This document shows positions 1,542 through 48,397 of a DNA stretch of 64,000 nt, piece by piece. Position numbers and translations under genes: made by a program. The stretch comes from Pasteurellaceae bacterium Orientalotternb1. Its GTDB lineage: Bacteria > Pseudomonadota > Gammaproteobacteria > Enterobacterales > Pasteurellaceae. The notes beneath the pieces are model-generated. The model was not told the origin of the DNA. It ran no database searches and was given only the letters and a program-made list of their open reading frames with translations. Position 1 is the stretch's first letter; every line of letters starts with the position of its first letter. The DNA lies in contig CP015028.1 in NCBI GenBank assembly GCA_011455275.1, forward strand, positions 1,276,911-1,340,910, read 5' to 3'.

Positions 1542-1678
1542 AGGATTGATGAAATTATTCACTCAAAAATAGGAATATAAGAAATGAAACCTAAATTATT
1601 TCACAAGCAGAAACAATCTACGCCAATTTCTGCTAAAATGCAACAAATTTCTAGATTGTTATTGACAACCCCAAACCG

Positions 1679-1782
1679 TTCGCCGTATGCTTCCCCCGCT
1701 TTCGCAAAATCGAAAGCCGAGTGTGGAAACTCGAATAGATACACGGCGAATAATAGCACGCTTTTAATCCGTGCTTTTTTTA
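1679..1782 (+). ncRNA. C4/CI-like antisense immunity RNA candidate
   Basis: The sequence folds as a three-way junction. The outer stem pairs TTCGCCGT (1679-1686) with ACGGCGAA (1743-1750). Hairpin 1 pairs GCTTTCG (1698-1704) with CGAAAGC (1711-1717). Hairpin 2 pairs CGAGT (1718-1722) with ACTCG (1729-1733). All stems are perfect. It is followed at once by a terminator hairpin and U-run. The position upstream of an Ash/Icd-like gene matches the C4 RNA of phage P1 and the CI RNA of P4, which are processed from the same-strand leader and pair with the downstream leader. Loop 1 (AAAATCG, 1706-1712) is complementary to 1812-1818 and loop 2 (GTGGAAA, 1723-1729) to 1889-1895. The RNA region also reads as open frame, in frame with the downstream gene. 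The 5' end is not resolved. Confidence 0.6.
1755..1781 (+). terminator. Rho-independent terminator after the structured RNA
   Basis: AGCACG (1755-1760) pairs perfectly with CGTGCT (1770-1775) across a 9-nt loop and is followed by a T-run to 1781. It lies five bases beyond the closing stem of the C4-like RNA and would release a short RNA before the Ash/Icd-like gene. Confidence 0.7.
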
Positions 1783-1836
1783 TTCGTTGCTCACGCACAC
1801 CTAAAGAACGCCGATTTTTGGCGTGTTCGCCTATGG

Positions 1837-1942
1837 TAGCGTGTAGCGGGCAAGGCTTAGCCCTTGACTGTGTTCCGTGTATCGCAGTTTTCCACCCCGT
1901 TGCACGCTATCGCCCTACATTGTGGAAAATGTTAGCGATAGC
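1837..1942 (+). promoter_or_regulatory. Leader with mutually exclusive RNA stems
   Basis: Two long pairings compete in this leader. Fold A pairs TAGCGTG (1837-1843) with CACGCTA (1903-1909) and encloses CAAGG/CCTTG and ACTGTG/CGCAGT hairpins, echoing the upstream three-way junction. Fold B pairs GCTATCGC (1906-1913) with GCGATAGC (1935-1942) and stacks ACATT (1917-1921) on AATGT (1928-1932). The folds share 1906-1909, so they cannot coexist. Fold B ends 19 nt before the GGAG ribosome-binding site of the next gene. This looks like a target region for antisense control; the direction of the switch is inferred. Confidence 0.5.
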
Positions 1943-1973
1943 CCCAATCAATTTTTACACGGAGCTATCAGCA

Positions 1974-2423
1974 ATGAAACAATTTGCCTACTCATTCCTA
2001 TGCGTAAATCGTAACGCAGACACCTACCAAGAAGAAGTCATCCGCATTATCGCCGACAGCGAGCAAAACGCCCGTTTTCAGCTTACCGCCGATTATCGTC
2101 TTGCCCTTGCCCGCCCGATTGCAAAAGTTTTACATAAACCGACCGCTTGCTCTGCTCAAACTCAAGCACAAGGGGGATTTATGCGTAATTCACTCAATTT
2201 TAATCATTGCAAAATCAAAAATATCAACATCGACCAATCAGAAAAAAAATACGAGATCAATGTGTTCGTATTGCACACTGGTACACGAGACAACGTCGAT
2301 GTTAAGCAGTATTTCAATCATAGCATAGCTGGAAATGTGGCTGGCTTAAAAGCAGAACTAAGTGCTTGTGAACAGGAGATCAGCCATAGAGCAGGAAATA
2401 AGAAAGGGGGCGAAAATGCGTAA
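1974..2423 (+). CDS. Ash/Icd-like (host cell division inhibitor-like) satellite protein
   Basis: I place the start at the ATG at 1974, which has GGAG eleven bases upstream and begins MKQFAYSFLCVNRNA. The N-terminal segment with RIIADSEQNARFQLTADYRL resembles the Icd-like/Ash proteins of P1/P4-type elements. The frame is open back to an ATG at 1584, and homologous entries are often annotated with that extension, but 1679-1942 is dominated by RNA stems, so the extension may not be translated. An internal in-frame ATG at 2181, preceded by AAGGGGGA, could start a second, shorter protein carrying the C-terminal MRNSLNFN portion. In P1, Icd inhibits division and couples translation of the antirepressor; a similar role here is inferred. 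Confidence 0.55.
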   Translation: MKQFAYSFLCVNRNADTYQEEVIRIIADSEQNARFQLTADYRLALARPIAKVLHKPTACSAQTQAQGGFMRNSLNFNHCKIKNINIDQSEKKYEINVFVLHTGTRDNVDVKQYFNHSIAGNVAGLKAELSACEQEISHRAGNKKGGENA

Positions 2424-2940
2424 TTCAGCCCTAAACGAGAAAATGCGAGTAGTCGATTTAGGCGTAGCCGTTTGCATTGATGCAATTATTCGCAACGCCG
2501 AAGCCCTATAAAATGACACCATTACCAGCGAGCGAGCAAGCCAATACAAAGCCCAAATTAGAAAAAATGCCCAAACTTACAAGCAAGCAATTGATGAGCT
2601 TTTAGGCGTGTTTGATGATGACAAGCAACGACAGACGGCAAACAAACCAGCCAATTTTGCCGATTTTTCGCAAAATCTAACCCGTTGTACAGCTTGTGGA
2701 ATTGCGGATAAAGAGACAGATGATGCAATGCAACAGTTAGCGATTGCAACCGAAGCAGCAATCAGTATTCCATTCATTATTCAGCAATTGATTGAAACCG
2801 TAGGTAATCAGCAAAAACTAGAAACTACCTTGTATGACTTTTCAGAAATGGCAACGGTTTATTTACAGCACGTCATCACCTAGAGGGAAGCATTGCAACA
2901 AGTGCTAATTTTGAAAGAGCAAGGGGGCAGTGATGAGTAG
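2416..2940 (+). pseudogene. Satellite gene broken by in-frame stop codons
   Basis: The ATG at 2416 has an AAAGGGGG ribosome-binding site and opens a frame beginning MRNSALNEKMRVVDLGVAV that hits TAA at 2509-2511 after 31 codons. The same frame then runs without interruption (NDTITSERASQYK, then LLGVFDDDKQRQ) to TAG at 2881-2883, and beyond it continues REALQQVLILKEQGG to TAG at 2938-2940, where it overlaps the next gene as the other gene pairs in this cluster do. The simplest reading is a single gene of about 174 codons with one clear nonsense codon, and perhaps two. The 2608-2883 part could survive as a truncated product. No function is recognised. Confidence 0.5.
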
Positions 2941-3256
2941 CTTACAAACGAAAGCGATTATCGAAGAGCTGAAAGGCTTTTTAGATGAATCACTAGCCCG
3001 CCATTTTAGCGAATTAAAAGAAAGCCTAGCCCCAAAAGAAGAGCTGGCATTTATTCGCCTATCTGAAGCGATGAAAATGCTAGGAGCAGGCAGAGCCACG
3101 TTTGACCGCTGGCAAAATCCAAAATCGGAGTATTACATTCCCGATTTTCCAAGAAAAATCAGAATGGGCGGATACGTTTTCTATGAAAGAAACGAAATTC
3201 AAGCCTTTATGCAAACAAGACTAGAACAACGGGAACAAGGGGGAGAACAATGCTAA
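2933..3256 (+). CDS. AlpA/excisionase-like DNA-binding protein
   Basis: About 107 residues from the ATG at 2933 (a GTG at 2930 is a weaker alternative), with AAGGGGGC directly upstream. A charged, probably helical N-terminal region (FLDESLARHFSELKESLAPK) precedes an AlpA-like winged-helix segment: FIRLSEAMKMLGAGRATFDR, then IPDFPRKIRMGGYVFYERNE. The family binds DNA to control integrase or excision. The extended N-terminus is unusual for AlpA and may mediate oligomerisation. It overlaps the next gene by 7 bp. Confidence 0.65.
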   Translation: MSSLQTKAIIEELKGFLDESLARHFSELKESLAPKEELAFIRLSEAMKMLGAGRATFDRWQNPKSEYYIPDFPRKIRMGGYVFYERNEIQAFMQTRLEQREQGGEQC

Positions 3257-3477
3257 CACACCGCATAAACTTACCAGACGGCACAGAGATCGAATTTTTT
3301 GCCAGCGATGAAGCCACTTTCCAGCAACAATTTGGCAATTTCAACCCGTTTGAACAGATGCAATCTTTCGCCGATTTTCAACGCTATCAGCAAGCTCACC
3401 GCAGAAAGCACCGAGCCAGCAAAACCAGCAAACAAGCGAAGAAACGGCAGAAATTAGCAAGACGTAAACACCGCTAA
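3250..3477 (+). CDS. Small hypothetical protein with a basic tail
   Basis: A 75-residue protein starting at the ATG that overlaps the stop region of the AlpA-like gene, with GGGGGAG just upstream. The first half is mixed and aromatic (FASDEATFQQQFGNF); the last 28 residues are almost entirely Lys, Arg, Ala, Gln and His, ending KKRQKLARRKHR, suggesting nucleic-acid binding. I do not recognise the family. It is probably translated together with its upstream neighbour and ends just before a hairpin. Confidence 0.55.
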   Translation: MLTHRINLPDGTEIEFFASDEATFQQQFGNFNPFEQMQSFADFQRYQQAHRRKHRASKTSKQAKKRQKLARRKHR

Positions 3478-3490
3478 CCACCCCAAAAAT

Positions 3491-3511
3491 ACGGGCGATT
3501 TTTTCGCCCGT
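3491..3511 (+). terminator. Terminator-like hairpin
   Basis: ACGGGCG (3491-3497) pairs with CGCCCGT (3505-3511), with an A plus T-run loop. It separates the small regulatory genes from the helicase gene. There is no U-tract after the stem, so it may be a weak terminator or an RNA-processing signal. Confidence 0.4.
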
Positions 3512-3546
3512 TCATCATAAATTTTGCAGAATTTAAGGATTGAGAG

Positions 3547-5436
3547 ATGAAAATCAAAGCACATAATTTAAGAACTTTGCTTAAACAAGACCCCGCACCA
3601 CAGCAGGAAGTGTTTATTTTGATGGGGGAAGATGTATGGGGATTTTACCGAGAAGATCGTAAAGACAGAAAAACAGATGGTTCAGGGCAAGGTTGGCGAT
3701 TATTTGCCGATATTGTGAAGGCAGGAAATCCGAATCGCTATCAAGATGCTCCGATTTTGATTGATGAAAATAATATTGGAAAGATTGCAAGCCTTGAAAT
3801 TTTACCGCAACGGCAGCAAGTGGCGAGCATTGTTGATACTGATGGCTTTTTTGGCGTAAAGCGAAGCGAAAATGGGATCACAATTCGACACAATCAGCAA
3901 ATTTTAACTGATATTTGCTTAAACCTTGCTAAAAATACCGCAGTAAATACGCTCACCTTACGGAATAATACGGGGGAATTACTGGAAGACCTAAGCGGAC
4001 ACGTTAGCCGTATTCGTAATGATGATGAGCTTGCCAAATTATCCGCAACACCTGAACAAATTGAACTTGATGGCGAGATGATGAAAAAACTCGCCCCAAA
4101 TGAACGGGCAGAATATTTTTATAAGTGGTATAACAAACCCCTAGCTTTTCATAGCCAACATAAAGAAATCTACATTTTCAACGGTAAATGCTGGAAAATT
4201 CTAGATGAAACACTGCTTTTTCGTGCGATTCGTGATTTTCATCAAGAGTATGGAGCAAACTATTATTCCGTTGATCGCATTAAAGCGATTCGTGATTGTT
4301 TAGCCGTTGATTTACCCCTTTTCGGAGAAACCAAAAATAATCTACTCGCATTTAATAATGGCGTATTGAATAAGAATACATTGGAGTTTTTGCCCCATAG
4401 TCAAGACTATTGGCTTACAGGCTTTAATCAGTGTGATTACTTGCAAATGGAAACACCAACACCGAATTTTGATAAATGGCTAGATTTTATCAGTTACGGA
4501 GATGAAGCCCGCAAGCGTTCATTCCTTGCAGGGCTATATATGATTTTGAATAACCGCAACGATTGGGAACTTACTCTTGAACTTATTGGCGAAGCAGGCG
4601 GCGGGAAGAGCGTTTATTTAGAAATCGGTAAGTTATTAAGCGGTGATGGTAATCATTGTGCTATGGAGCTGGAAATTCTAAAAGATGATAAAGCTAGAGA
4701 CGTCATCTTAAATAAAACTTTTTTATACTCTTCCGATCAAAGTAAATATGTTGGTGATGCGTCGATTGTGAAACAAATTTCTAGTGGCGAAGAAATCACT
4801 TTTAACCCGAAGAATAAAAAATCGTTTAATCAACGAGTACAGGCGATTATTGCAATTTGTTCTAACACGTTACCGATATATCGTAATGATGGGGGAGGAA
4901 TGGATAGACGGCGGGTAATTTTCCCGTTTAATCGAGCGGTAGATGAAAAAGATCGTGATATTAACTTAAAGCAGAACATCAAAAGCGAGTTAGGCGGGAT
5001 TATCCGTAAACTATATGATACTTTCCCAAATGCAAACGAAGCAAAATTAGCTCTCTTTAACCAAAAAAACAGTAAAGAAGCCTTGGAAATGAAGCGGAAG
5101 AACGATCATATTTTAGAATTTATTCAAGAATTTGAGCTATTGCCACAAGTAACGACTGAAGGCTTAGTGCTTGGCAGCAGTAAAAACGCACCAGCAACCA
5201 ATACCGATTTGATTTTTAACCGTTTGTATTGGATTTATTTACTCTTTTGTGAAGTACAAGGGCGAACAGATAAGCAAATTTTGAAGCCCGCCGATTTAGT
5301 CGATGAAATGACACAAGCATTCAAAACAGCAGGCTATAAAACCAGATTTCAAAGCCGAGTTTTAGGCAAAAGAGCGAATCACACCAACGTTGTTTTGAGA
5401 GATAAACAAGAAACGAAATTCAAGTGGCAGTTTTAG
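3547..5436 (+). CDS. P4/D5-family phage replicative helicase (primase-helicase family)
   Basis: A 629-residue protein. Residues about 180-300 look like the D5_N region (LLAFNNGVLN near 267-276). A superfamily 3 helicase core follows: Walker A GEAGGGKS (348-355), SSDQSKYVGDASIVKQ (395-410) as the Walker B/C region, SNTLP (439-443) and the DGGGMDRRR arginine motif (448-456), the hallmark of phage/plasmid P4-family proteins. The first 170 residues show no Cys-rich zinc motif or recognisable primase catalytic motif, so I call it a helicase with an uncharacterised N-terminus. In P4 the equivalent alpha protein also binds the origin iterons; an iteron array lies directly downstream. Confidence 0.88.
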   Translation: MKIKAHNLRTLLKQDPAPQQEVFILMGEDVWGFYREDRKDRKTDGSGQGWRLFADIVKAGNPNRYQDAPILIDENNIGKIASLEILPQRQQVASIVDTDGFFGVKRSENGITIRHNQQILTDICLNLAKNTAVNTLTLRNNTGELLEDLSGHVSRIRNDDELAKLSATPEQIELDGEMMKKLAPNERAEYFYKWYNKPLAFHSQHKEIYIFNGKCWKILDETLLFRAIRDFHQEYGANYYSVDRIKAIRDCLAVDLPLFGETKNNLLAFNNGVLNKNTLEFLPHSQDYWLTGFNQCDYLQMETPTPNFDKWLDFISYGDEARKRSFLAGLYMILNNRNDWELTLELIGEAGGGKSVYLEIGKLLSGDGNHCAMELEILKDDKARDVILNKTFLYSSDQSKYVGDASIVKQISSGEEITFNPKNKKSFNQRVQAIIAICSNTLPIYRNDGGGMDRRRVIFPFNRAVDEKDRDINLKQNIKSELGGIIRKLYDTFPNANEAKLALFNQKNSKEALEMKRKNDHILEFIQEFELLPQVTTEGLVLGSSKNAPATNTDLIFNRLYWIYLLFCEVQGRTDKQILKPADLVDEMTQAFKTAGYKTRFQSRVLGKRANHTNVVLRDKQETKFKWQF

Positions 5437-5449
5437 GAAAAATAGAAAG

Positions 5450-5482
5450 TCGTGTAATTTCAATGAGTTGCACGATTTTTTT
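5450..5482 (+). terminator. Terminator of the helicase gene
   Basis: TCGTGTAA (5450-5457) pairs with TTGCACGA (5468-5475) with one G-U pair and is followed by seven T residues. It lies 14 bp after the helicase stop codon. Confidence 0.7.
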
Positions 5483-6252: not shown

Positions 6253-6566
6253 ATAAACCACTTTCAGCCGAAGAAAAAACCGAGCTAGGTATTACCCGCT
6301 TTGATGCGGCGGAATACTTAGACAGTGACGAATTGATCGCTTTATACCTTGCCGAAACCTTGAAAGACGGTACAGATGCGGAATTTATCCAAGCCTTGAA
6401 TACGGTTGCAAGAGCAAAGGGAATGAACGAAATCGCCAAAAAAGCGGGGATTGGCAGAGAAAGCCTATATCAAACCCTTTCAAGCAGTAAGCCAAGATTT
6501 GAAACGGTTCGCAAAATTTTAGATGCGATGAATATCGAGCTTATTCCAACCATTAAAACCGCATAG
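6249..6566 (+). CDS. HigA-like antitoxin (HI1420-like)
   Basis: A 105-residue protein starting at the ATG at 6249, overlapping the toxin stop by 4 bp; a longer in-frame extension lies inside the toxin gene and is unlikely. The N-terminus (ITRFDAAEYLDSDELIALYL) is the toxin-contacting part of this antidote family. The C-terminus is a Cro/CI-type helix-turn-helix (MNEIAKKAGIGRESLYQTLS), expected to bind the operon promoter. It is followed by a terminator. Confidence 0.85.
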   Translation: MNKPLSAEEKTELGITRFDAAEYLDSDELIALYLAETLKDGTDAEFIQALNTVARAKGMNEIAKKAGIGRESLYQTLSSSKPRFETVRKILDAMNIELIPTIKTA

Positions 6567-39965: not shown

Positions 39966-40028
39966 GCAAGCGGTCGGTTTTTGAGAAAAATTTGCAAATT
40001 GGGGGGAAAGTGCTGTGGGAAATTTTGA
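39966..40028. repeat. Left copy of a composite uptake-signal direct repeat
   Basis: This segment and 41361-41424 share GCAAGCGGTYGGTTTTTG, a TTTGCAAA-type AT block and GGGGAAAGTGCKGTGGG in the same order and orientation. Each joins an Apl-like signal to a Hin-like signal. They bracket the DUF4143 ATPase gene. Confidence 0.65.
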
Positions 40029-40146
40029 ACTTTATCTATTTATTAGGTTTATTCCTATAAAAATAGACAAAATTGCAATTTGTTTATGGATATAACCATA
40101 AAAAGTGATAGTATATTTTTAGTTATTCACTCACAACCCTAAAACT

Positions 40147-41361
40147 ATGATCACTAGACCAACGTATCTTGCACAGCTCAAGCCCTTTATTGATAAGCCT
40201 TTTGTCAAAGTTATCACAGGTTTACGCCGTAGTGGTAAATCCACGGTGTTGAAATTATTGCAGACGGAGCTACTTGAGCGTGGTGTGCAAAATGAGCAAA
40301 TTATTTACATCAATCTGGAAAGTTTTGCTTTTAGCGAGCTAAAAAGTGCGGTGAAGTTGTATGAATTTGTGAAAAGCCAAATTCGTTCAACCGAAAAGCA
40401 TTATATCTTGCTAGACGAAATTCAAGATGTGCGAGAGTGGGAAAAAGCGGTCAATGCGTTTATGGTCGATTTCAATGTGGATTTGTATATCACGGGTTCT
40501 AATTCACAGCTACTTTCTTCCGAACTTTCCACTTATTTGGCTGGACGTTATGTGGAAATTCCGATTTTTACGTTGTCGTTTCAGGAATCTTTAGCATTTA
40601 AAGCGGCTTATGCCACGGATGCTTTTACCACAGAAACGGCGTTTAACGATTATCTGCATAAAGGTGGGTTTCCTGTTATTCACACGGCGAATTACAACGA
40701 AGAAACTGCCTATAAAATCGTGCAAGATATTTATGCTTCGGTGATTTTGCGAGATACGGTGCAACGACATAAAATCCGTGATGTTGAGCTGCTGGAGCGG
40801 ATTATTAAATTTGCTTTCGATAATATCGGTAACACCTTTTCTGGCAAAAATGTGGCGGATTTTTTCAAAAGTCAGCAGCGAAAAGTGGATATTAATACCG
40901 TTTACAACTACTTAAAAGCGTTGGAAGGGGCATTTATTTTGCATCGGGTGGAGCGTTTTGATATTCGTGGCAAAGAAATTCTCAAAACCCAAGAGAAGTT
41001 TTATTTGGGCGATATTGCCTTGCTTTACGCCGTAATGGGTTTTCGCCCGACATTAATTTCAGGCATTCTCGAAAATATGGTTTACCTTGAACTCAAACGC
41101 CAAGGCTATCAGGTTTATATCGGTAAACTGGGCGATAAAGAAGTGGATTTTATTGCACAAAAACAAGATGAAAAATTGTATATCCAAGTGGCTTATAAAC
41201 TAGAAAGCGAGCAAACCGTGCAACGTGAATTTACTCCATTGCTTGCCATTGCCGATAATTACCCGAAATATGTGGTGACTTTAGATGAGCTTTGGAAAGG
41301 TAATATTGAAGGCGTAAAACATCTGCATATGGTGGAGTTTTTGATGGGGAATGCTGGGTAG
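40147..41361 (+). CDS. AAA ATPase with DUF4143 nuclease-like C-terminus
   Basis: A 404-residue protein. Walker A GLRRSGKSTVLKLLQ, Walker B YILLDEIQDVREWEKAV and sensor DLYITGSNSQLLSSEL belong to the AAA_14 group. The C-terminal DUF4143 part has QEKFYLGDIALLYAV and a PD-(D/E)XK-like strand pair DKEVDFIAQK and KLYIQVAYK. These proteins are frequent accessory genes; the function is unproven. A Hin-type uptake signal lies inside the gene (40344) and composite repeats lie on both sides, suggesting acquisition by transformation. Confidence 0.85.
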   Translation: MITRPTYLAQLKPFIDKPFVKVITGLRRSGKSTVLKLLQTELLERGVQNEQIIYINLESFAFSELKSAVKLYEFVKSQIRSTEKHYILLDEIQDVREWEKAVNAFMVDFNVDLYITGSNSQLLSSELSTYLAGRYVEIPIFTLSFQESLAFKAAYATDAFTTETAFNDYLHKGGFPVIHTANYNEETAYKIVQDIYASVILRDTVQRHKIRDVELLERIIKFAFDNIGNTFSGKNVADFFKSQQRKVDINTVYNYLKALEGAFILHRVERFDIRGKEILKTQEKFYLGDIALLYAVMGFRPTLISGILENMVYLELKRQGYQVYIGKLGDKEVDFIAQKQDEKLYIQVAYKLESEQTVQREFTPLLAIADNYPKYVVTLDELWKGNIEGVKHLHMVEFLMGNAG

Positions 41362-41424: not shown

Positions 41425-41480
41425 GGAGTTTTAAAACAGAATGGCACTTGGATTGTGCCATCTGATTATGTATGGGTAAA

Positions 41481-43217
41481 TTAAGTTTCTATTTTAGTCG
41501 TATTCCATACTTTAGAAAATGAAGCACTTCTAGATTGGGGAGCAAACTGAGGCTTTTTGATTTTAACTTTCATTGGAAATGGAAAATCAACCCCAAGCAA
41601 AAGTGCTTCGCCTTGCCCAAGTACAGGTAAAAAAGCAGCTGAGCGATTGTCAATAGAGCCAACGGCTTTTTTTACAATTTCTTGGTCTTTTTCATTAGTT
41701 AGTCTATGAACAATCAGTGTTCCGATTTGGCTTAGTACATCTTCAGGAATATCCCTAGGTCTTTGTGTTGCCATAACGATATTTAAACCATATTTTCTTC
41801 CTTCTTTTGCAATATCTCCAAAAGCTGTCAGATTCATTCTACTGTTTTCATCGCCAATAGATTTATTTAAAAATTGATGGGACTCATCAATGAAAACAAG
41901 CAATGGATTTTCATAACTAATAGCACCTTTGCGAGCACAATCTAATAATTTACGACCTATTGTATTAACCAATATTTCCCTTGCATTTGCTTCAAATGGG
42001 ACAGAAGAAAGATCTAGACGGATTATTGGGTTTGTTTGATTAAGGCATACTTTATTTATAACATCGGGTATTGTAGTAAGATTCTGATCGCTATCTAACA
42101 TCCACTTTAAGTGCGGACTATTTTGCATAGCTTTAATACGAGAAATTAGGCTTAAACAATATCCAATGTCATTATCATATCTTTTCCCCCATCTAGCAGG
42201 ATCAGATCCTCCTGTAGGATATACACATTCTTCGATAATTTGCTCAGCTAATGCGGAAAATTCCCAAGGAATTTCAGAGAAATTTTTATCTATTGAAGTT
42301 ATTGCATTCTCAAAAGGTTGTTTGGGTTGCTCTGCTTTTTTTAAATTTCTATCATTTATGGCTAAATCTTTAGCCTGTTGTACTTGGGATTGTTGTGAAT
42401 AGTATGAAACTATTTTTAAACTCCGAATTGCTTCTTCTAATTTCGGAGATTGGCTTCCTGCGGATGGTCTCAATAAAGCTCTTATATCTGAATCGGTAAA
42501 CATCCAATGTGGATAAGTAACTTGATTTTGAGCATTTGCATTAGTATGCCCACCAACATAATAACTTGTACAAGGCAAATCTTCATATTCTCCAGTTGCA
42601 TCTAACAATAAAACCTTACCGCCTTGTGAAGCCACATTATTTATCAGATTTGCCATGGTGTAGCTTTTACCACCACCAGTTGAACCTAAAATAGCACAGT
42701 GTCGGGCAAACAATTTTTCAGGCGTTAAATGAATTGTTACGGATGAATCATTCGGTATTTCTGCAATTGGAAGCTGTAATTCGCTATTATTACTAGCTAA
42801 TTTTCCTTCGGCTAATAGAGAGACTAAATTTGGATGAGCCGAATAAATTTGTGCTCCTAATTTAGGATATTGTCTAATTCCTTTGTAGTTAAACCCTTTT
42901 TCTACATCAACGCTGACTAATAATTGGACTAAACCAATAGGGTTATTATTGGGATAATGTTCGTCTAAATTATCCACGCTTAGACGTTCACCATTTTCTA
43001 ACCATACTTTAACCATTCTGCCTAGAATTGATGTTTGACCACAATCAATAAAAATAAATTCATTGACTTCTCCAATTGGAATGCGATTTCCTAATAGCCA
43101 AACTTGTTCACCTGTTCCTGCTTTGGTTAGATTTATTTTGGCTTCAGTAGCAGATATTTCGATCAAACTCCCTATACGTCTTTTTAAATCATGTGGTGAA
43201 AACCATTCTGTATTCAT
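41481..43217 (-). CDS. HerA-type ATPase of a SIR2-HerA defence pair
   Basis: A 578-residue protein. An N-terminal HAS-barrel-like region (1-150) precedes the FtsK/HerA ATPase core: Walker A GSTGGGKSYTMANLI (178-192), LLLDATGEYEDL, Walker B LLVFIDESHQFL (439-450) and the arginine region ATQRPRDIPEDVLSQIGTLI (483-502). HerA forms a hexameric motor; in SIR2-HerA systems it assembles with the SIR2 NADase to sense phage DNA. Its start overlaps the SIR2 stop by 4 bp, so the two are translationally coupled. Lower GC than neighbours and no uptake signal support transfer. Confidence 0.9.
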   Translation of the reverse strand: MNTEWFSPHDLKRRIGSLIEISATEAKINLTKAGTGEQVWLLGNRIPIGEVNEFIFIDCGQTSILGRMVKVWLENGERLSVDNLDEHYPNNNPIGLVQLLVSVDVEKGFNYKGIRQYPKLGAQIYSAHPNLVSLLAEGKLASNNSELQLPIAEIPNDSSVTIHLTPEKLFARHCAILGSTGGGKSYTMANLINNVASQGGKVLLLDATGEYEDLPCTSYYVGGHTNANAQNQVTYPHWMFTDSDIRALLRPSAGSQSPKLEEAIRSLKIVSYYSQQSQVQQAKDLAINDRNLKKAEQPKQPFENAITSIDKNFSEIPWEFSALAEQIIEECVYPTGGSDPARWGKRYDNDIGYCLSLISRIKAMQNSPHLKWMLDSDQNLTTIPDVINKVCLNQTNPIIRLDLSSVPFEANAREILVNTIGRKLLDCARKGAISYENPLLVFIDESHQFLNKSIGDENSRMNLTAFGDIAKEGRKYGLNIVMATQRPRDIPEDVLSQIGTLIVHRLTNEKDQEIVKKAVGSIDNRSAAFLPVLGQGEALLLGVDFPFPMKVKIKKPQFAPQSRSASFSKVWNTTKIET

Positions 43218-44452
43218 TTAATATCTCCTATAGCAACCTGCTGAAAAATATGAAAAATCTCTTCTTCTGGAGTAGATTTATTTCTTTCGGGCAATTGTTC
43301 AACAAAAGTAGCGAAATCACTATCAATAAGTGAAATGCGAGAGTCTCCAGCTTCAATAGCTTTCATTAATAATTCTCTAATATCTTTGTTAAAAGAGCCT
43401 GTTTCATCAAAAAGTGAACGTGTTCCAACCATCAATAATAATTCTGGATTTGTACGCAATGCCATTGTAATTGCATTATTGATATGTTTATCGTTAAAAC
43501 CGAATCCAAGGCATAAAATGGCTGTTTTAGGTTTTTGTACAGCTTCTAAAAAACTTGCCATCATATCTAAGTAAGGTGATTCATAAGAGGTTTGATATTT
43601 AGTACTACTTGGGTAAATAATAACAGGCTCTCCTTGTTGGGAATCAGATATTCTTTTTTGAATACCGTGATCTGTTTTCAACCAATCTACAGAACCGTGG
43701 ATTTTGTAAAGGTGGAATACATTGGGAAGATAAGAATTTGCTTTATCTGAAGCTTGGGTTTTATGCACAATGTCATAATGAAACCATGCAGGATTGAAGC
43801 GATGCGGTCTGCCAAATTCAAAACCATCAATTATGATCATTCCTATATTAGATGCTGCCGTTTCAAACGCTAAATCATAGTTAGTTGTGAATAGTTTTAA
43901 ACGTTTTTGTTTAGGTTGTCTTTTTCCCAAAACTCGTAGTAGTTTGTTATGATGTTCCCACTCACTGGAGTCTAAGATTTTTTCTGTGAAGTTAGTTTGT
44001 TGTAAAATTTCTAATTTTGCGTCTTTAACGAATTTTTTTAATTGCTGTAATCGACGATTAGATAAATTTTGTAAAGATAAAAAAGTATCACAGCGTGACA
44101 GCAAAAGTTCAATATCTTTCGATACATATTCTTGTCCTTTTTCATCTGTCCATTTTTTTGCAAAATCCTTGTAATTTGTATATTCCTTAATTTCGTTAAA
44201 AACCTTAGGGTTTTTCTCTTCACAATAATTCCAAAGATCTGTCATACTTGGTGCAGGGTGAGCCTGTGTAGTATTGAATGTTAAAGAAGTCCCTGAGCCA
44301 GCTAAAACAATAATATTTTCAGCATCAAGAATTTGATTTAATGATTTGGATAATAAGGATTGTCGTTCTTTTTGTTTATCATCTAATGATGAAAAATCAA
44401 TATTAACTGGTTCTTTTTCAGAGATATTGGAAGAAAAAAATTTTATATTCAT
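43214..44452 (-). CDS. SIR2-family NADase of a SIR2-HerA defence pair
   Basis: A 412-residue protein. The NAD-binding loop is VLAGSGTSLTF (49-59), the catalytic region holds LFTTNYDLAFE (Asn191, Asp193) and YKIHGSVDWL (His252), and GFGFNDKHI (316-324) completes the Rossmann fold. The middle contains an insertion of about 100 Lys-rich residues. In known SIR2-HerA (Nezha-type) systems this subunit cleaves NAD or DNA on phage infection. The gene comes first in the operon, with AAGGATTC before the ATG and an AT-rich promoter region. No close paralogue is visible. Confidence 0.9.
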   Translation of the reverse strand: MNIKFFSSNISEKEPVNIDFSSLDDKQKERQSLLSKSLNQILDAENIIVLAGSGTSLTFNTTQAHPAPSMTDLWNYCEEKNPKVFNEIKEYTNYKDFAKKWTDEKGQEYVSKDIELLLSRCDTFLSLQNLSNRRLQQLKKFVKDAKLEILQQTNFTEKILDSSEWEHHNKLLRVLGKRQPKQKRLKLFTTNYDLAFETAASNIGMIIIDGFEFGRPHRFNPAWFHYDIVHKTQASDKANSYLPNVFHLYKIHGSVDWLKTDHGIQKRISDSQQGEPVIIYPSSTKYQTSYESPYLDMMASFLEAVQKPKTAILCLGFGFNDKHINNAITMALRTNPELLLMVGTRSLFDETGSFNKDIRELLMKAIEAGDSRISLIDSDFATFVEQLPERNKSTPEEEIFHIFQQVAIGDIK

Positions 44453-44532: not shown

Positions 44533-47500
44533 TCACTTCATCACCACCCCCAACCACTTCACCATTTCCCTTTCATCCCAACCTTTGCGTTTGGCGTAAT
44601 CCACCGCCTGATCTTCATCAATCCGCCCTAACGTGAAGTAGTTGCTGGCTGGGTGGGAGAAGTACCAGCCGCAGACGCTGGCGGCGGGCCACATGGCGTA
44701 GCTTTCGGTGAGTTTCATACCGATGCGTTGTTCTACTTCAAGTAAATCCCAGATGATCGCTTTTTCGGTGTGTTCTGGGCAGCTTGGGTAGCCAGGGGCG
44801 GGGCGGATGCCGATGTAGTTTTCGGCGATCAAGCCAGCGTTGTCGAGGTTTTCGTCTGGCGAATATCCCCAAATTTTCAACCGAAGTTGGTGGTGCAAGT
44901 ATTCCGCCATGGCTTCGGCTAAACGGTCGCCGACGGCTTGCAGTAAGATGGCGTTGTAGTCATCGCCTGCGGCTTTGTAGCTTTCCACTAAGTCGTGTTC
45001 TTCAATGCCGGCACAGACGGCGAACATTCCCAGCCAGTCTTTTTGTCCGCTTTGTTTATCGGCGATAAAGTCGCTCAAGCAAAGGTTGTACGGGCTTTTG
45101 CTGTTTTTGTTGCGTTCGCTTTGTTGGCGTAAGTGATAGCAAGTGCCAGCGATTTCTTGGCGTGCTTCGTCACGATAGACCACAATATCATCGTCCACAC
45201 GTTCTGCTGGGAAAATGCCTAAAATGCCCGTTGGGTTGAGTTTATGATTTTGAGCCAGCTCGTCTAGCACGACTTGAGCATCATTCCACACTTTGCGTGC
45301 TTCTTCGCCACCTTCTGGATAATCGAAGGCATCAGGGTAGCCGCCCATCAAGCCCCATACACGGAAGAATGGCGACCAGTCGATATAGCCACGCAGGATT
45401 TCAATCGGCACATTTTTAAATTCCACAATGCCCGTTTGATGTGGCTGCGGTACTTGGTAATCCGCCCATTCGCCAGCAAAGGCGTTAAAGCGATTTTGGC
45501 GAGCTTCTTCAATCGGCAACTGTTTGCGTAGCGGCTTGCGGTTGGCGAAAGTATGTTGGATTTGCTCATATTCTTTTTTGGTGCGTTCCCACAATTCTGC
45601 TTTGGTTTCAGGGTTCATCAACGCCGCACAAACGGTCACGGCACGGGAGGCGTTAGTGGTGTAGATCACTTCATATTTATATTGGGGATAGAGTTTGATC
45701 GCCGTGTGTTCTTTGGAGGTGGTTGCACCGCCAATCAGCACCGGAATGTTCAAACCCAAGCGGCTCATTTCGCCAAGGAAATATTCCATTTCATCTAGCG
45801 ATGGCGTAATCAAACCGCTCAAGCCGATGATGTCGGCTTTTTCGTCAATTGCAGTTTGAATAATTTTGTCTGCAGGTACCATTACACCCAAGTCAATCAC
45901 TTCAAAGTTGTTACATTGCAGCACCACGCTCACGATATTTTTACCGATGTCGTGCACATCGCCTTTTACGGTAGCAATCACCACTTTGCCGCTAGACGAG
46001 CCTTTCTGCTTGGTGGCATTGATAAACGGCTCCAAATAGGCGACCGACTGCTTCATTACCCGAGCGGATTTCACCACTTGCGGCAGGAACATTTTGCCAT
46101 CGCCGAACAAATCGCCCACCACGTCCATTCCGTCCATTAGCGGCCCTTCGATCACTTCCAGCGGTGAGCTAAATTTTAGGCGAGCCTCTTCGGTGTCTTC
46201 GATAATATGGTTGGTGATGCCTTTCACGAGTGCGTGTTTTAAGCGTTCTTCCACTGCCCACGTCCGCCATTCTGCTACCCCCGTAGTTTGGCTACTACAA
46301 GCGGTCAGATCCCGTAATTTTTCTGCAAATTCGAGCAAACGGTCAGTTGCGTCAGCACGGCGATTGAGTACAGCATCTTCCACCACGGTACACAATTCAG
46401 GATCGAGATCGTCATAAATCGCTAACTGCCCAGCATTGACAATCCCCATATCCATTCCTTGCTTGATAGCGTGATAGAGAAACACGGCATGAATCGCTTC
46501 ACGCATCGGGTTGTTACCACGGAAAGAGAAGGAGACATTCGACACACCGCCTGAAATTTTAGCGTGGGGGAGAGTACGTTTAATACGCCCCGTCGCATTG
46601 ATAAAGTCCACGCCGTAATTGTTGTGTTCTTCAATGCCCGTGCCAATGGCAAAAATGTTCGGGTCGAAAATAATATCTTCAGGTGGAAAGCTTACTTGAT
46701 CCACCAAAATGTTGTACGCACGAGTACAAATTTCCACTTTGCGATCTTCAGTATCCGCTTGCCCCACTTCATCAAACGCCATCACCACCACTGCCGCACC
46801 ATAACGGCGAACCAGTTTCGCTTGGCGGATAAAATTTTCTTCGCCTTCTTTGAGAGAAATCGAGTTCACAATCCCTTTGCCTTGAATGGATTGCAAACCC
46901 GCCTCGATCACCTCCCATTTGGACGAGTCAATCATCACTGGCACTTTTGCCGCTTCGGGTTCAGTCGCCATAATGTTGAGGAATTTGGTCATACACTTTT
47001 GCGAATCGAGCAAGGCTTCGTCCATATTCACGTCAATCACTTGTGCACCGTTTTCCACCTGATCGATAGCGATCTCAATCGCCTCGGCAAACTTATCTTC
47101 TTTGACTAAGCGTTTGAATTTGGCAGACCCCGTCACGTTATTGCGTTCGCCCACGTTTACGAATAGGCTTTCGTCATCAATGTTGAGCGGTTCTAAGCCC
47201 GATAAACGCATTGCGGTTTTGATTTCGGGCAACTGGCGTGGCTTGATGCCGTCCATTGCTTTGGCGAAGGCTTGGATATGTTCTGGCGTGGTGCCGCAAC
47301 AGCCGCCGACAATATTCAAAAAGCCGCTTTCCGCCCACTCTTTGAGTTGTGCCGCCATTTCGGCTGCACCTAAATCGTAGCCGCCAAAGGCGTTCGGCAA
47401 GCCTGCATTAGGGTGTGCTGAAACATAACATTCGCTGATTTTCGACAGTTGTTCCACATATTGACGCAATTCTTTCGGGCCTAAGGCACAGTTCAAGCCG

Positions 47501-48222
47501 AAACTGAGCGGCTTTGCGTGGCGGAGAGAGTTGTAGAAGGCTTCGGTGGTTTGCCCTGAAAGGGTACGCCCCGAAGCATCGGTGATGGTGCCTGAAATCA
47601 TTACAGGCAGCACTACGCTGAGTTCTTCAAACACTTGGTCAATGGCAAATGCCGCCGCTTTAGCATTGAGCGTATCGAAAATGGTTTCGATCATAATGAT
47701 GTCCGCACCGCCTTCCACCAAGCCTTTGGTCGCTTCAGCGTAGGCATCGACTAACTGCATAAAAGTCACATTGCGGAAACTCGGATCGTTTACATCAGGG
47801 GAAATGGACGCCGTGCGGTTGGTCGGCCCCAGAACGCCTGCTACAAACCGCGGTTTTTCTGGGGTTGAATATTTGTCCGCCGCCAAACGTGCCAGTTTCG
47901 CCCCTACAAAATTCAGCTCATAAGCGACCGCTTGTAAGTCGTAATCCGCCTGTGCGATGGTGGTGGAGCTGAAAGTGTTGGTTTCAATAATATCCGCTCC
48001 CGCCGCCAAATATTTTTCGTGAATGGCTTTAATCAACAGCGGCTGCGTGAGCGTTAGCAAATCGTTATTGCCCCGCAAATCAATCGGGCTATCCTTAAAC
48101 CGCTCGCCACGGAAATCTGCTTCGGTCAGTCTATATTTCTGAATCATCGTCCCCATTGCACCGTCTAGAATCAAAATGCGTTGGGCGAGAAGATCTTTTA
48201 AAAGTTGTGCTGAGTTTTGCAT
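44533..48222 (-). CDS. metH: Cobalamin-dependent methionine synthase
   Basis: The start at 48222 ([20 protein letters not shown]) aligns with MetH, giving 1229 residues; the frame extends upstream without support. Modules in order: homocysteine domain with zinc Cys ([11 protein letters not shown]), pterin domain ([13 protein letters not shown]), cobalamin cap and binding ([10 protein letters not shown], ligand His, and [13 protein letters not shown]), then the AdoMet reactivation domain ending [12 protein letters not shown]. It remethylates homocysteine with 5-methyltetrahydrofolate. The exact uptake signal at 46297 lies in the linker after the pterin domain and is read as [12 protein letters not shown]. 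No cobalamin riboswitch is visible upstream. Confidence 0.95.
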
Positions 48223-48397
48223 AGATTTGTATTCTTTAAAGAGAAAAATTGCAGGAATAATAGGAAGATAACGGGGGAGTGTCAAAGGGTAAATTTAGGG
48301 ATTGCAAGCGGTTAGATTTTTACTGAGTTTTGCAAATCGAGAGGTGCAAAAAATTGGCTAAAAATGACCGCTTGTATGGCAAATTCGTGTAAAATAG

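What the first reader, a model, noticed from the sequence alone, without database searches (positions are those of the whole stretch)
41481..44452. SIR2-HerA anti-phage defence pair next to metH
A SIR2 subunit with intact NAD-binding and catalytic residues overlaps by 4 bp a HerA ATPase with intact Walker motifs. Known SIR2-HerA (Nezha-type) complexes deplete NAD on infection. The locus lies beside the ATPase cassette and lacks uptake signals, forming a small defence island between yecE and metH. The SIR2 insertion (residues about 90-180) is Lys-rich and may be a sensor specific to this lineage.
Basis: partly seen in the sequence, partly recalled or inferred. Interest (0 to 1): 0.7.

Follow-up and report, generated by a model that had tools for sequence, protein, structure and literature searches.

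The report
SIR2-HerA defence pair in variable slot
Two overlapping genes in a Pasteurellaceae-type bacterium encode an intact but distant relative of the known SIR2-HerA (Nezha) anti-phage machine, which destroys the cell's NAD to stop phages; they sit between two housekeeping genes, yecE and metH, in a slot that related species fill with different anti-phage systems.

Summary
In detail: SIR2 (43214-44452, minus strand, 412 aa) and HerA (41481-43217, minus strand, 578 aa) overlap by 4 bp (ATGA), and both are intact. They match PADLOC SIR2 and HerA models over nearly their whole length (E 2e-193 and 2e-282). The nearest folds of the SIR2 model are the E. coli Nezha SIR2 chains. N191 and H252 correspond to N168 and H227, whose mutation abolishes defence in V. 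cholerae, and are invariant in all relatives aligned. I file the pair as a divergent member of a known kind: about 20-25% identical to solved complexes and below NCBIfam's equivalog cut-offs. Two side claims fail: residues 90-180 are not a lineage-specific insertion, and the lack of uptake signals is not significant over the pair (P(0)=0.21). The defence-island idea is strengthened: in 24 genomes the yecE-metH interval runs from 0.2 to 11.8 kb and holds exchangeable systems (retrons, Septu-like, RM and others). A new side observation: the convergent AAA_14/DUF4143 gene at 40147-41361 travels with SIR2-HerA elsewhere, and its 3' end is a precise switch point for different defence cargo. Activity in this organism is inferred, not shown.

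The parts
43214..44452 (-). SIR2-like NADase subunit (412 aa), first gene of the pair
43880..43888 (-). codons T189-N191 (TTN) holding the presumed catalytic N191, equivalent to E. coli/V. cholerae N168
   Evidence: alignment to 8j4u, invariant, mutant data in PMC11559045
43691..43699 (-). codons H252-S254 (HGS) holding the presumed catalytic H252, equivalent to H227
43214..43217 (-). 4-bp ATGA overlap: SIR2 stop and HerA start (translational coupling inferred); a 4-bp overlap is kept in L065, L007, L008 and L009
41481..43217 (-). HerA-type hexameric ATPase/translocase (578 aa)
42663..42686 (-). Walker A of HerA (G178-S185, GSTGGGKS)
   Evidence: translation
41883..41903 (-). Walker B of HerA (L439-E445, LLVFIDE)
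   Evidence: translation
41440..41462 (-). terminator-like hairpin downstream of HerA (8 pairs, then CTGTTTTAAA)
   Evidence: consensus match only
40147..41361 (+). AAA_14/DUF4143 ATPase (404 aa; PADLOC candidate PDC-S01), convergent with HerA; the same arrangement is in Neisseria MAG L008 and, with a HerA remnant, in L077
39072..39911 (-). yecE/DUF72, one core flank of the variable slot
44533..48285 (-). metH, the other core flank of the variable slot; SIR2 starts 80 bp after its stop, same strand

Best explanation
This is a functional two-gene SIR2-HerA anti-phage module, a divergent member of the SIR2-HerA (Nezha) kind, acquired into the yecE-metH slot, which is a defence hotspot in this bacterial family. 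Inferred mechanism: SIR2 forms a two-layer dodecamer, a HerA hexamer docks on it and opens the NAD pocket, and on infection SIR2 hydrolyses NAD+ through N191/H252 to ADP-ribose and nicotinamide. The NAD-starved cell stops supporting the phage (abortive infection). HerA supplies ATPase-driven assembly or DNA translocation. Shown here: intact genes, conserved active sites, fold match, conserved pairing and variable-slot location. Inferred from studied homologues: complex formation, NAD loss, protection. Unknown: what triggers it.
For: Full-length PADLOC hits to SIR2 and HerA. The significant PDB sequence matches of SIR2 are all SIR2 subunits solved with HerA (8yhx, 8j4u, 8w9l), and HerA matches HerA of defence complexes. 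Foldseek hits of the SIR2 model: the top 37 are all SIR2 chains of SIR2-HerA systems, E 2e-17 downwards; the HerA model matches 8wiv/8wld and 8j4u. N191/H252 map to N168/H227, whose Ala mutants lose immunity to ICP1-3 in V. cholerae, where HerA is also needed (PMC11559045). Both residues are invariant in 15 sequences. A HerA gene adjoins SIR2 in every relative found. The same-subfamily pair is rare: 1 of the other 139 family genomes, G107. It has lower GC (32-35%) than metH (50%) or the window (42%). It sits in a slot whose other contents include many PADLOC defence genes.
Against: No activity was tested. Identity to characterised complexes is only about 20-25%, and NCBIfam equivalog scores are far below cut-off (133 of 500 bits for SIR2, 172 of 800 for HerA). 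The structure models are middling (pLDDT 69 and 57), and no complex could be modelled. No clear promoter was found in the 80 bp between metH and SIR2; the region's promoter-like hits (11) do not exceed shuffles (12.6), so expression is unproven.
Confidence: 0.85

Rival explanations
1. The pair is a SIR2-HerA system in which NAD hydrolysis is secondary and the main action is HerA-driven DNA translocation with nuclease cleavage of phage DNA, as proposed for part of the E. coli system.
For: E. coli SIR2-HerA has been reported to have NADase, nuclease and helicase/ATPase activities (Tang 2023 as cited in PMC11559045 and PMC12198126). Walker motifs are intact.
Against: In V. cholerae, single mutations of the NADase residues abolish immunity, and those residues are invariant here. 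No nuclease family was matched in either protein.
Confidence: 0.1
2. The functional unit is larger: SIR2, HerA and the convergent AAA_14/DUF4143 gene act together, the ATPase being a regulator, sensor or addiction part.
For: The AAA_14 gene abuts HerA convergently in the window and in Neisseria MAG L008, and abuts a HerA remnant in G055 at a third site.
Against: G107 and saliva contig L007 carry SIR2-HerA beside yecE without it. Most AAA_14 copies stand alone or next to other defence genes. It is on the opposite strand.
Confidence: 0.1
3. The pair is a silent or decaying passenger of a transferred system.
For: The pair is AT-rich and has no clear promoter. Remnants exist elsewhere: a G055 HerA fragment with a stop, a broken copy in L022.
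Against: Both ORFs are full length with intact motifs and ribosome-binding sites, and share 81-84% protein identity with the intact G107 copies.
Confidence: 0.1

Closest known systems
SIR2-HerA / Nezha of E. coli (PDB 8j4u, 8su9, 8sub, 8uae)
   Same: SIR2 plus HerA components, SIR2 fold (Foldseek E about 1e-17 to 1e-15), catalytic N and H, Walker motifs.
   Different: About 20% structural-alignment identity; scores below the NCBIfam equivalog cut-offs; a different PADLOC profile pair fits best by far (PDLC04075/PDLC04103).
Nezha of V. cholerae classical biotype (PMC11559045)
   Same: SIR2-herA pair in a chromosomal defence island; equivalent active-site residues N168/H227.
   Different: Different island (tonB-trmA) and host; defence there is shown, here inferred.
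Other solved SIR2-HerA complexes (8yhx; 8w9l/8wld, PsSIR2)
   Same: 8yhx is the best PDB sequence match for SIR2 (E 4e-28); 8wiv is the best for HerA (E 2e-32).
   Different: Partial sequence alignments only; the 8wiv HerA chain is about 700 aa against 578 here.
PADLOC SIR2 PDLC04075 and HerA PDLC04103 families; gammaproteobacterial pairs (Colwellia, Photobacterium, Yersinia and others, L010-L021)
   Same: Full-length match; 50-55% (SIR2) and 57-65% (HerA) identity, same gene order.
   Different: Different genomic contexts, several next to restriction-modification-like genes; most have a short gap between the genes rather than a 4-bp overlap.

Membership tests
SIR2-HerA (Nezha) anti-phage system | SIR2-like and HerA genes adjacent in one transcription direction | tested here: met
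   4-bp overlap, same strand; adjacency conserved in all relatives
SIR2-HerA (Nezha) anti-phage system | Catalytic Asn and His of the SIR2 NADase | tested here: met
   N191 and H252 align with N168/H227
SIR2-HerA (Nezha) anti-phage system | HerA Walker A and B motifs | tested here: met
   GSTGGGKS and LLVFIDE
SIR2-HerA (Nezha) anti-phage system | SIR2 fold closest to SIR2 of SIR2-HerA complexes, not to ThsA or Avs5 | tested here: met
   Top 37 PDB hits are SIR2 of SIR2-HerA systems; Avs5 and ThsA are far weaker
SIR2-HerA (Nezha) anti-phage system | 12:6 SIR2:HerA complex | not testable with these tools
   no complex prediction available
SIR2-HerA (Nezha) anti-phage system | NAD depletion and phage protection | not testable with these tools
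   needs bench work
NCBIfam equivalogs NF042942 SIR2_antiphage / NF042943 HerA_antiphage | Score above the curated cut-off | tested here: not met
   132.9 of 500 bits and 172 of 800 bits; related but outside these two narrow families
PADLOC SIR2 (PDLC04075) and HerA (PDLC04103) profiles | Full-length match to both profiles | tested here: met
   E 2e-193 and 2e-282 over about 98-99% of the proteins

The most novel reading that the evidence does not exclude
The AAA_14/DUF4143 gene next to the pair is the constant anchor of a modular defence cassette. The last few codons of this gene mark a precise junction at which whole defence operons (SIR2-HerA here; Qat, NACHT-like ATPases, a SIR2 protein and candidate genes elsewhere) are exchanged between strains, genera and probably between Pasteurellaceae and Neisseriaceae. 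The window's SIR2-HerA is one such cargo, recombined into the yecE-metH hotspot.
Probability: 0.4. Interest if true: 0.5.

Novelty: new member of a known kind. Interest (0 to 1): 0.35.

Why it matters
The pair itself adds one more branch to a known NAD-depleting defence system. The more useful result is where it sits. The metH-yecE interval is a variable slot rich in defence genes across a whole bacterial family, so reading that slot in other genomes should yield untested defence genes, and the 3' end of a particular AAA_14/DUF4143 gene may predict where exchangeable defence cargo begins. I found no earlier description of either in the open papers searched; that library is incomplete and the searches were narrow.

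Tried and rejected
Lys-rich lineage-specific sensor insertion: rejected by alignment. Lack of uptake signals as evidence of recent acquisition: tested, weak. Phage or plasmid carriage of the same subfamily: no close relative in phage records (3 weak hits) or plasmids (all under 60% identity). E. coli genomes hold only short DNA matches (23 of 5426 genomes). The Bacteroidota MAG contig L007 (82% identical) looked like cross-phylum transfer, but it ends in a Pasteurellaceae-type yecE gene and is 90-92% identical in DNA to G107, so it is very probably a mis-binned contig. Neisseria uptake words near AAA_14 copies suggested a Neisseria origin; counts of the word in the host genomes are low, so this stays a hint. 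Three SIR2-HerA structure papers were not held.

Full report
OBSERVATION. Both match PADLOC profiles over almost their whole length (SIR2 PDLC04075 E 2e-193, HerA PDLC04103 E 2e-282) and Pfam SIR2_2, DUF87 and HerA_C. The SIR2 gene occurs once in a 2.34-Mb genome.

WHAT IT IS. PDB sequence searches return SIR2 subunits of SIR2-HerA complexes (8yhx, 8j4u, 8w9l) and HerA subunits of defence complexes. An AlphaFold2 model of SIR2 (pLDDT 69) has E. coli SIR2-HerA SIR2 chains as nearest folds (E 2e-17) and only SIR2 chains of SIR2-HerA systems in its top 37 hits; Avs5 and ThsA are far weaker. The HerA model (pLDDT 57, first 181 residues under pLDDT 50) matches HerA of 8wiv/8wld and 8j4u. By counting along the alignment, E. 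coli N168 and H227 fall on N191 and H252; one search confirms the residues, and both are invariant in 15 sequences. In V. cholerae, N168A or H227A abolishes immunity and HerA is required (PMC11559045). HerA Walker A and B are intact. NCBIfam equivalog scores are far below cut-off, so this is a divergent subfamily, though already represented in PADLOC.

WHAT FAILED. The 90-180 'insertion' is present in every relative and in 8j4u, with one small local length difference near residues 104-111; it is mildly Lys-rich (13% against 7%). Uptake signals: this genome uses ACAAGCGGT (1219 against control 50), not AAGTGCGGT (45 against 59). None lies in the pair, but 1.5 are expected and P(0) is 0.21; over the 8.3-kb gap P is 0.014.

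DISTRIBUTION. Among 139 other genomes of the family, only G107 has the same-subfamily pair (81-84% identity); four others have remote SIR2-HerA relatives (about 30%). In a scan of one genome per species, 17 loci encode relatives: a saliva contig binned as Bacteroidota (82%), a Neisseria MAG (72%), and 50-60% relatives in Aquaspirillum and several marine and enteric gammaproteobacteria. All have HerA adjacent. L007 ends in a Pasteurellaceae-type yecE and is 90-92% identical in DNA to G107, so it is probably mis-binned.

A DEFENCE SLOT. metH and yecE hits lie on the same contig within 12 kb in 24 genomes, counting this one, with intervals of 0.19 to 11.8 kb, median 3.0 kb (in some the yecE copy is broken). 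G049 is close to an empty site. The slot contents I scanned match PADLOC models for retron II-A (L057), Septu-like PtuA/PDC-M01 (L061), type II RM (L062; a restriction enzyme in L086), a DUF262-type NsnA-like protein (L064), PifA-like (L082), RT-Toprim retron (L085), type I methyltransferase (L089) and candidates PDC-S05, S15, S26 and S72. L067 (retron III-A) and L078 (Qat) lie downstream of metH where I found no yecE. In G107, Lamassu-like genes and SIR2-HerA lie directly before yecE. I did not compare against random intervals, so enrichment is not quantified.

THE AAA_14 NEIGHBOUR. The gene at 40147-41361 (PADLOC candidate PDC-S01) is convergent with HerA. The same convergent arrangement is in Neisseria MAG L008 (AAA_14 81% identical), and in G055 an AAA_14 gene faces a HerA fragment with a stop codon at an unrelated site. 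In three genomes of one other genus, same-site AAA_14 copies have 93-96% identical flanks, but the DNA from the last 6-15 bp of the AAA_14 coding region to the far flank is unrelated: a NACHT-like ATPase (L095), PDC-S39 (L092) and an NA37 protein (L094). Other 3' neighbours are Qat (L078, AAA_14 90% identical), a 1332-aa NACHT-like protein (L096), a 943-aa SIR2 protein (L099), a DUF262-like protein (L097) and PDC-M48B (L102). Several copies have only ordinary genes 3' (L093, L100, L101, L103). G107 and L007 have SIR2-HerA without AAA_14, so it is not essential to the system. The NACHT hits are below Pfam's own cut-off. The cargo-anchor reading is my inference from 16 copies.

MECHANISM. Most likely: SIR2 dodecamer plus HerA hexamer, HerA binding opening the NAD pocket (reported for a staphylococcal homologue, cited in PMC12198126), NAD hydrolysis on infection, and abortive infection. 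Shown here: sequence, fold, active sites, pairing, location. Inferred: complex, activity, protection. The trigger is unknown; that review also lists the activation mechanism of SIR2-HerA as unclear.

VERDICT. Correctly spotted, new member of a known kind, interest 0.35. The variable slot and the AAA_14 cargo junction are the parts worth following.

Noticed in passing
window 40020-40146 and upstream of the AAA_14 gene in L077, L078, L092-L103: About 120 bp before the AAA_14/DUF4143 start carries one or more palindromes of the type TATGGTTATAACCATA, recognisable in all 15 copies inspected; possibly an operator for self-regulation.
   Followed up: partly
L008 7958-8019, L077 about 5395-5468, L100 about 6272-6340: The AAA_14-HerA junction is nearly identical in a Neisseria MAG and in G055, with a GCCATCTGAAA...TTTCAGATGGC inverted repeat resembling a Neisseria uptake-signal terminator; L100 keeps this junction without HerA, so it probably lost the pair.
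   Followed up: partly
L054 7137-7979 and L056 1068-1934: A 280-288 aa protein with no PADLOC or Pfam match (L054 copy scanned) fills the yecE-metH slot in G109 and in G047, the same-genus relative; candidate new defence gene.
   Followed up: no
L063 3367-7870: Three-gene slot cargo: DNA cytosine methyltransferase, a 699-aa HATPase protein with two ATPase domains, and a 457-aa response-regulator-like protein; possible uncharacterised defence operon.
   Followed up: no
L011-L013, L016-L020: Blocks of about 6 to 12 kb containing SIR2-HerA are 95-97% identical in DNA between Ningiella, Psychromonas, a Kordiimonas MAG, Yersinia alsatica, Neiella, Neptuniibacter, Neptunomonas and Gilvimarinus, implying a recently spread mobile element.
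   Followed up: partly
window 1584-5436: Phage-satellite-like genes by eye (an Icd/Ash-like ORF and a P4-type primase-like ORF) at the start of the window.
   Followed up: no
window 39654, 40344, 41406: Three AAGTGCGGT words within 1.8 kb although only 45 occur in the whole genome (not this genome's uptake signal); may point to DNA from a relative that uses that signal.
   Followed up: partly
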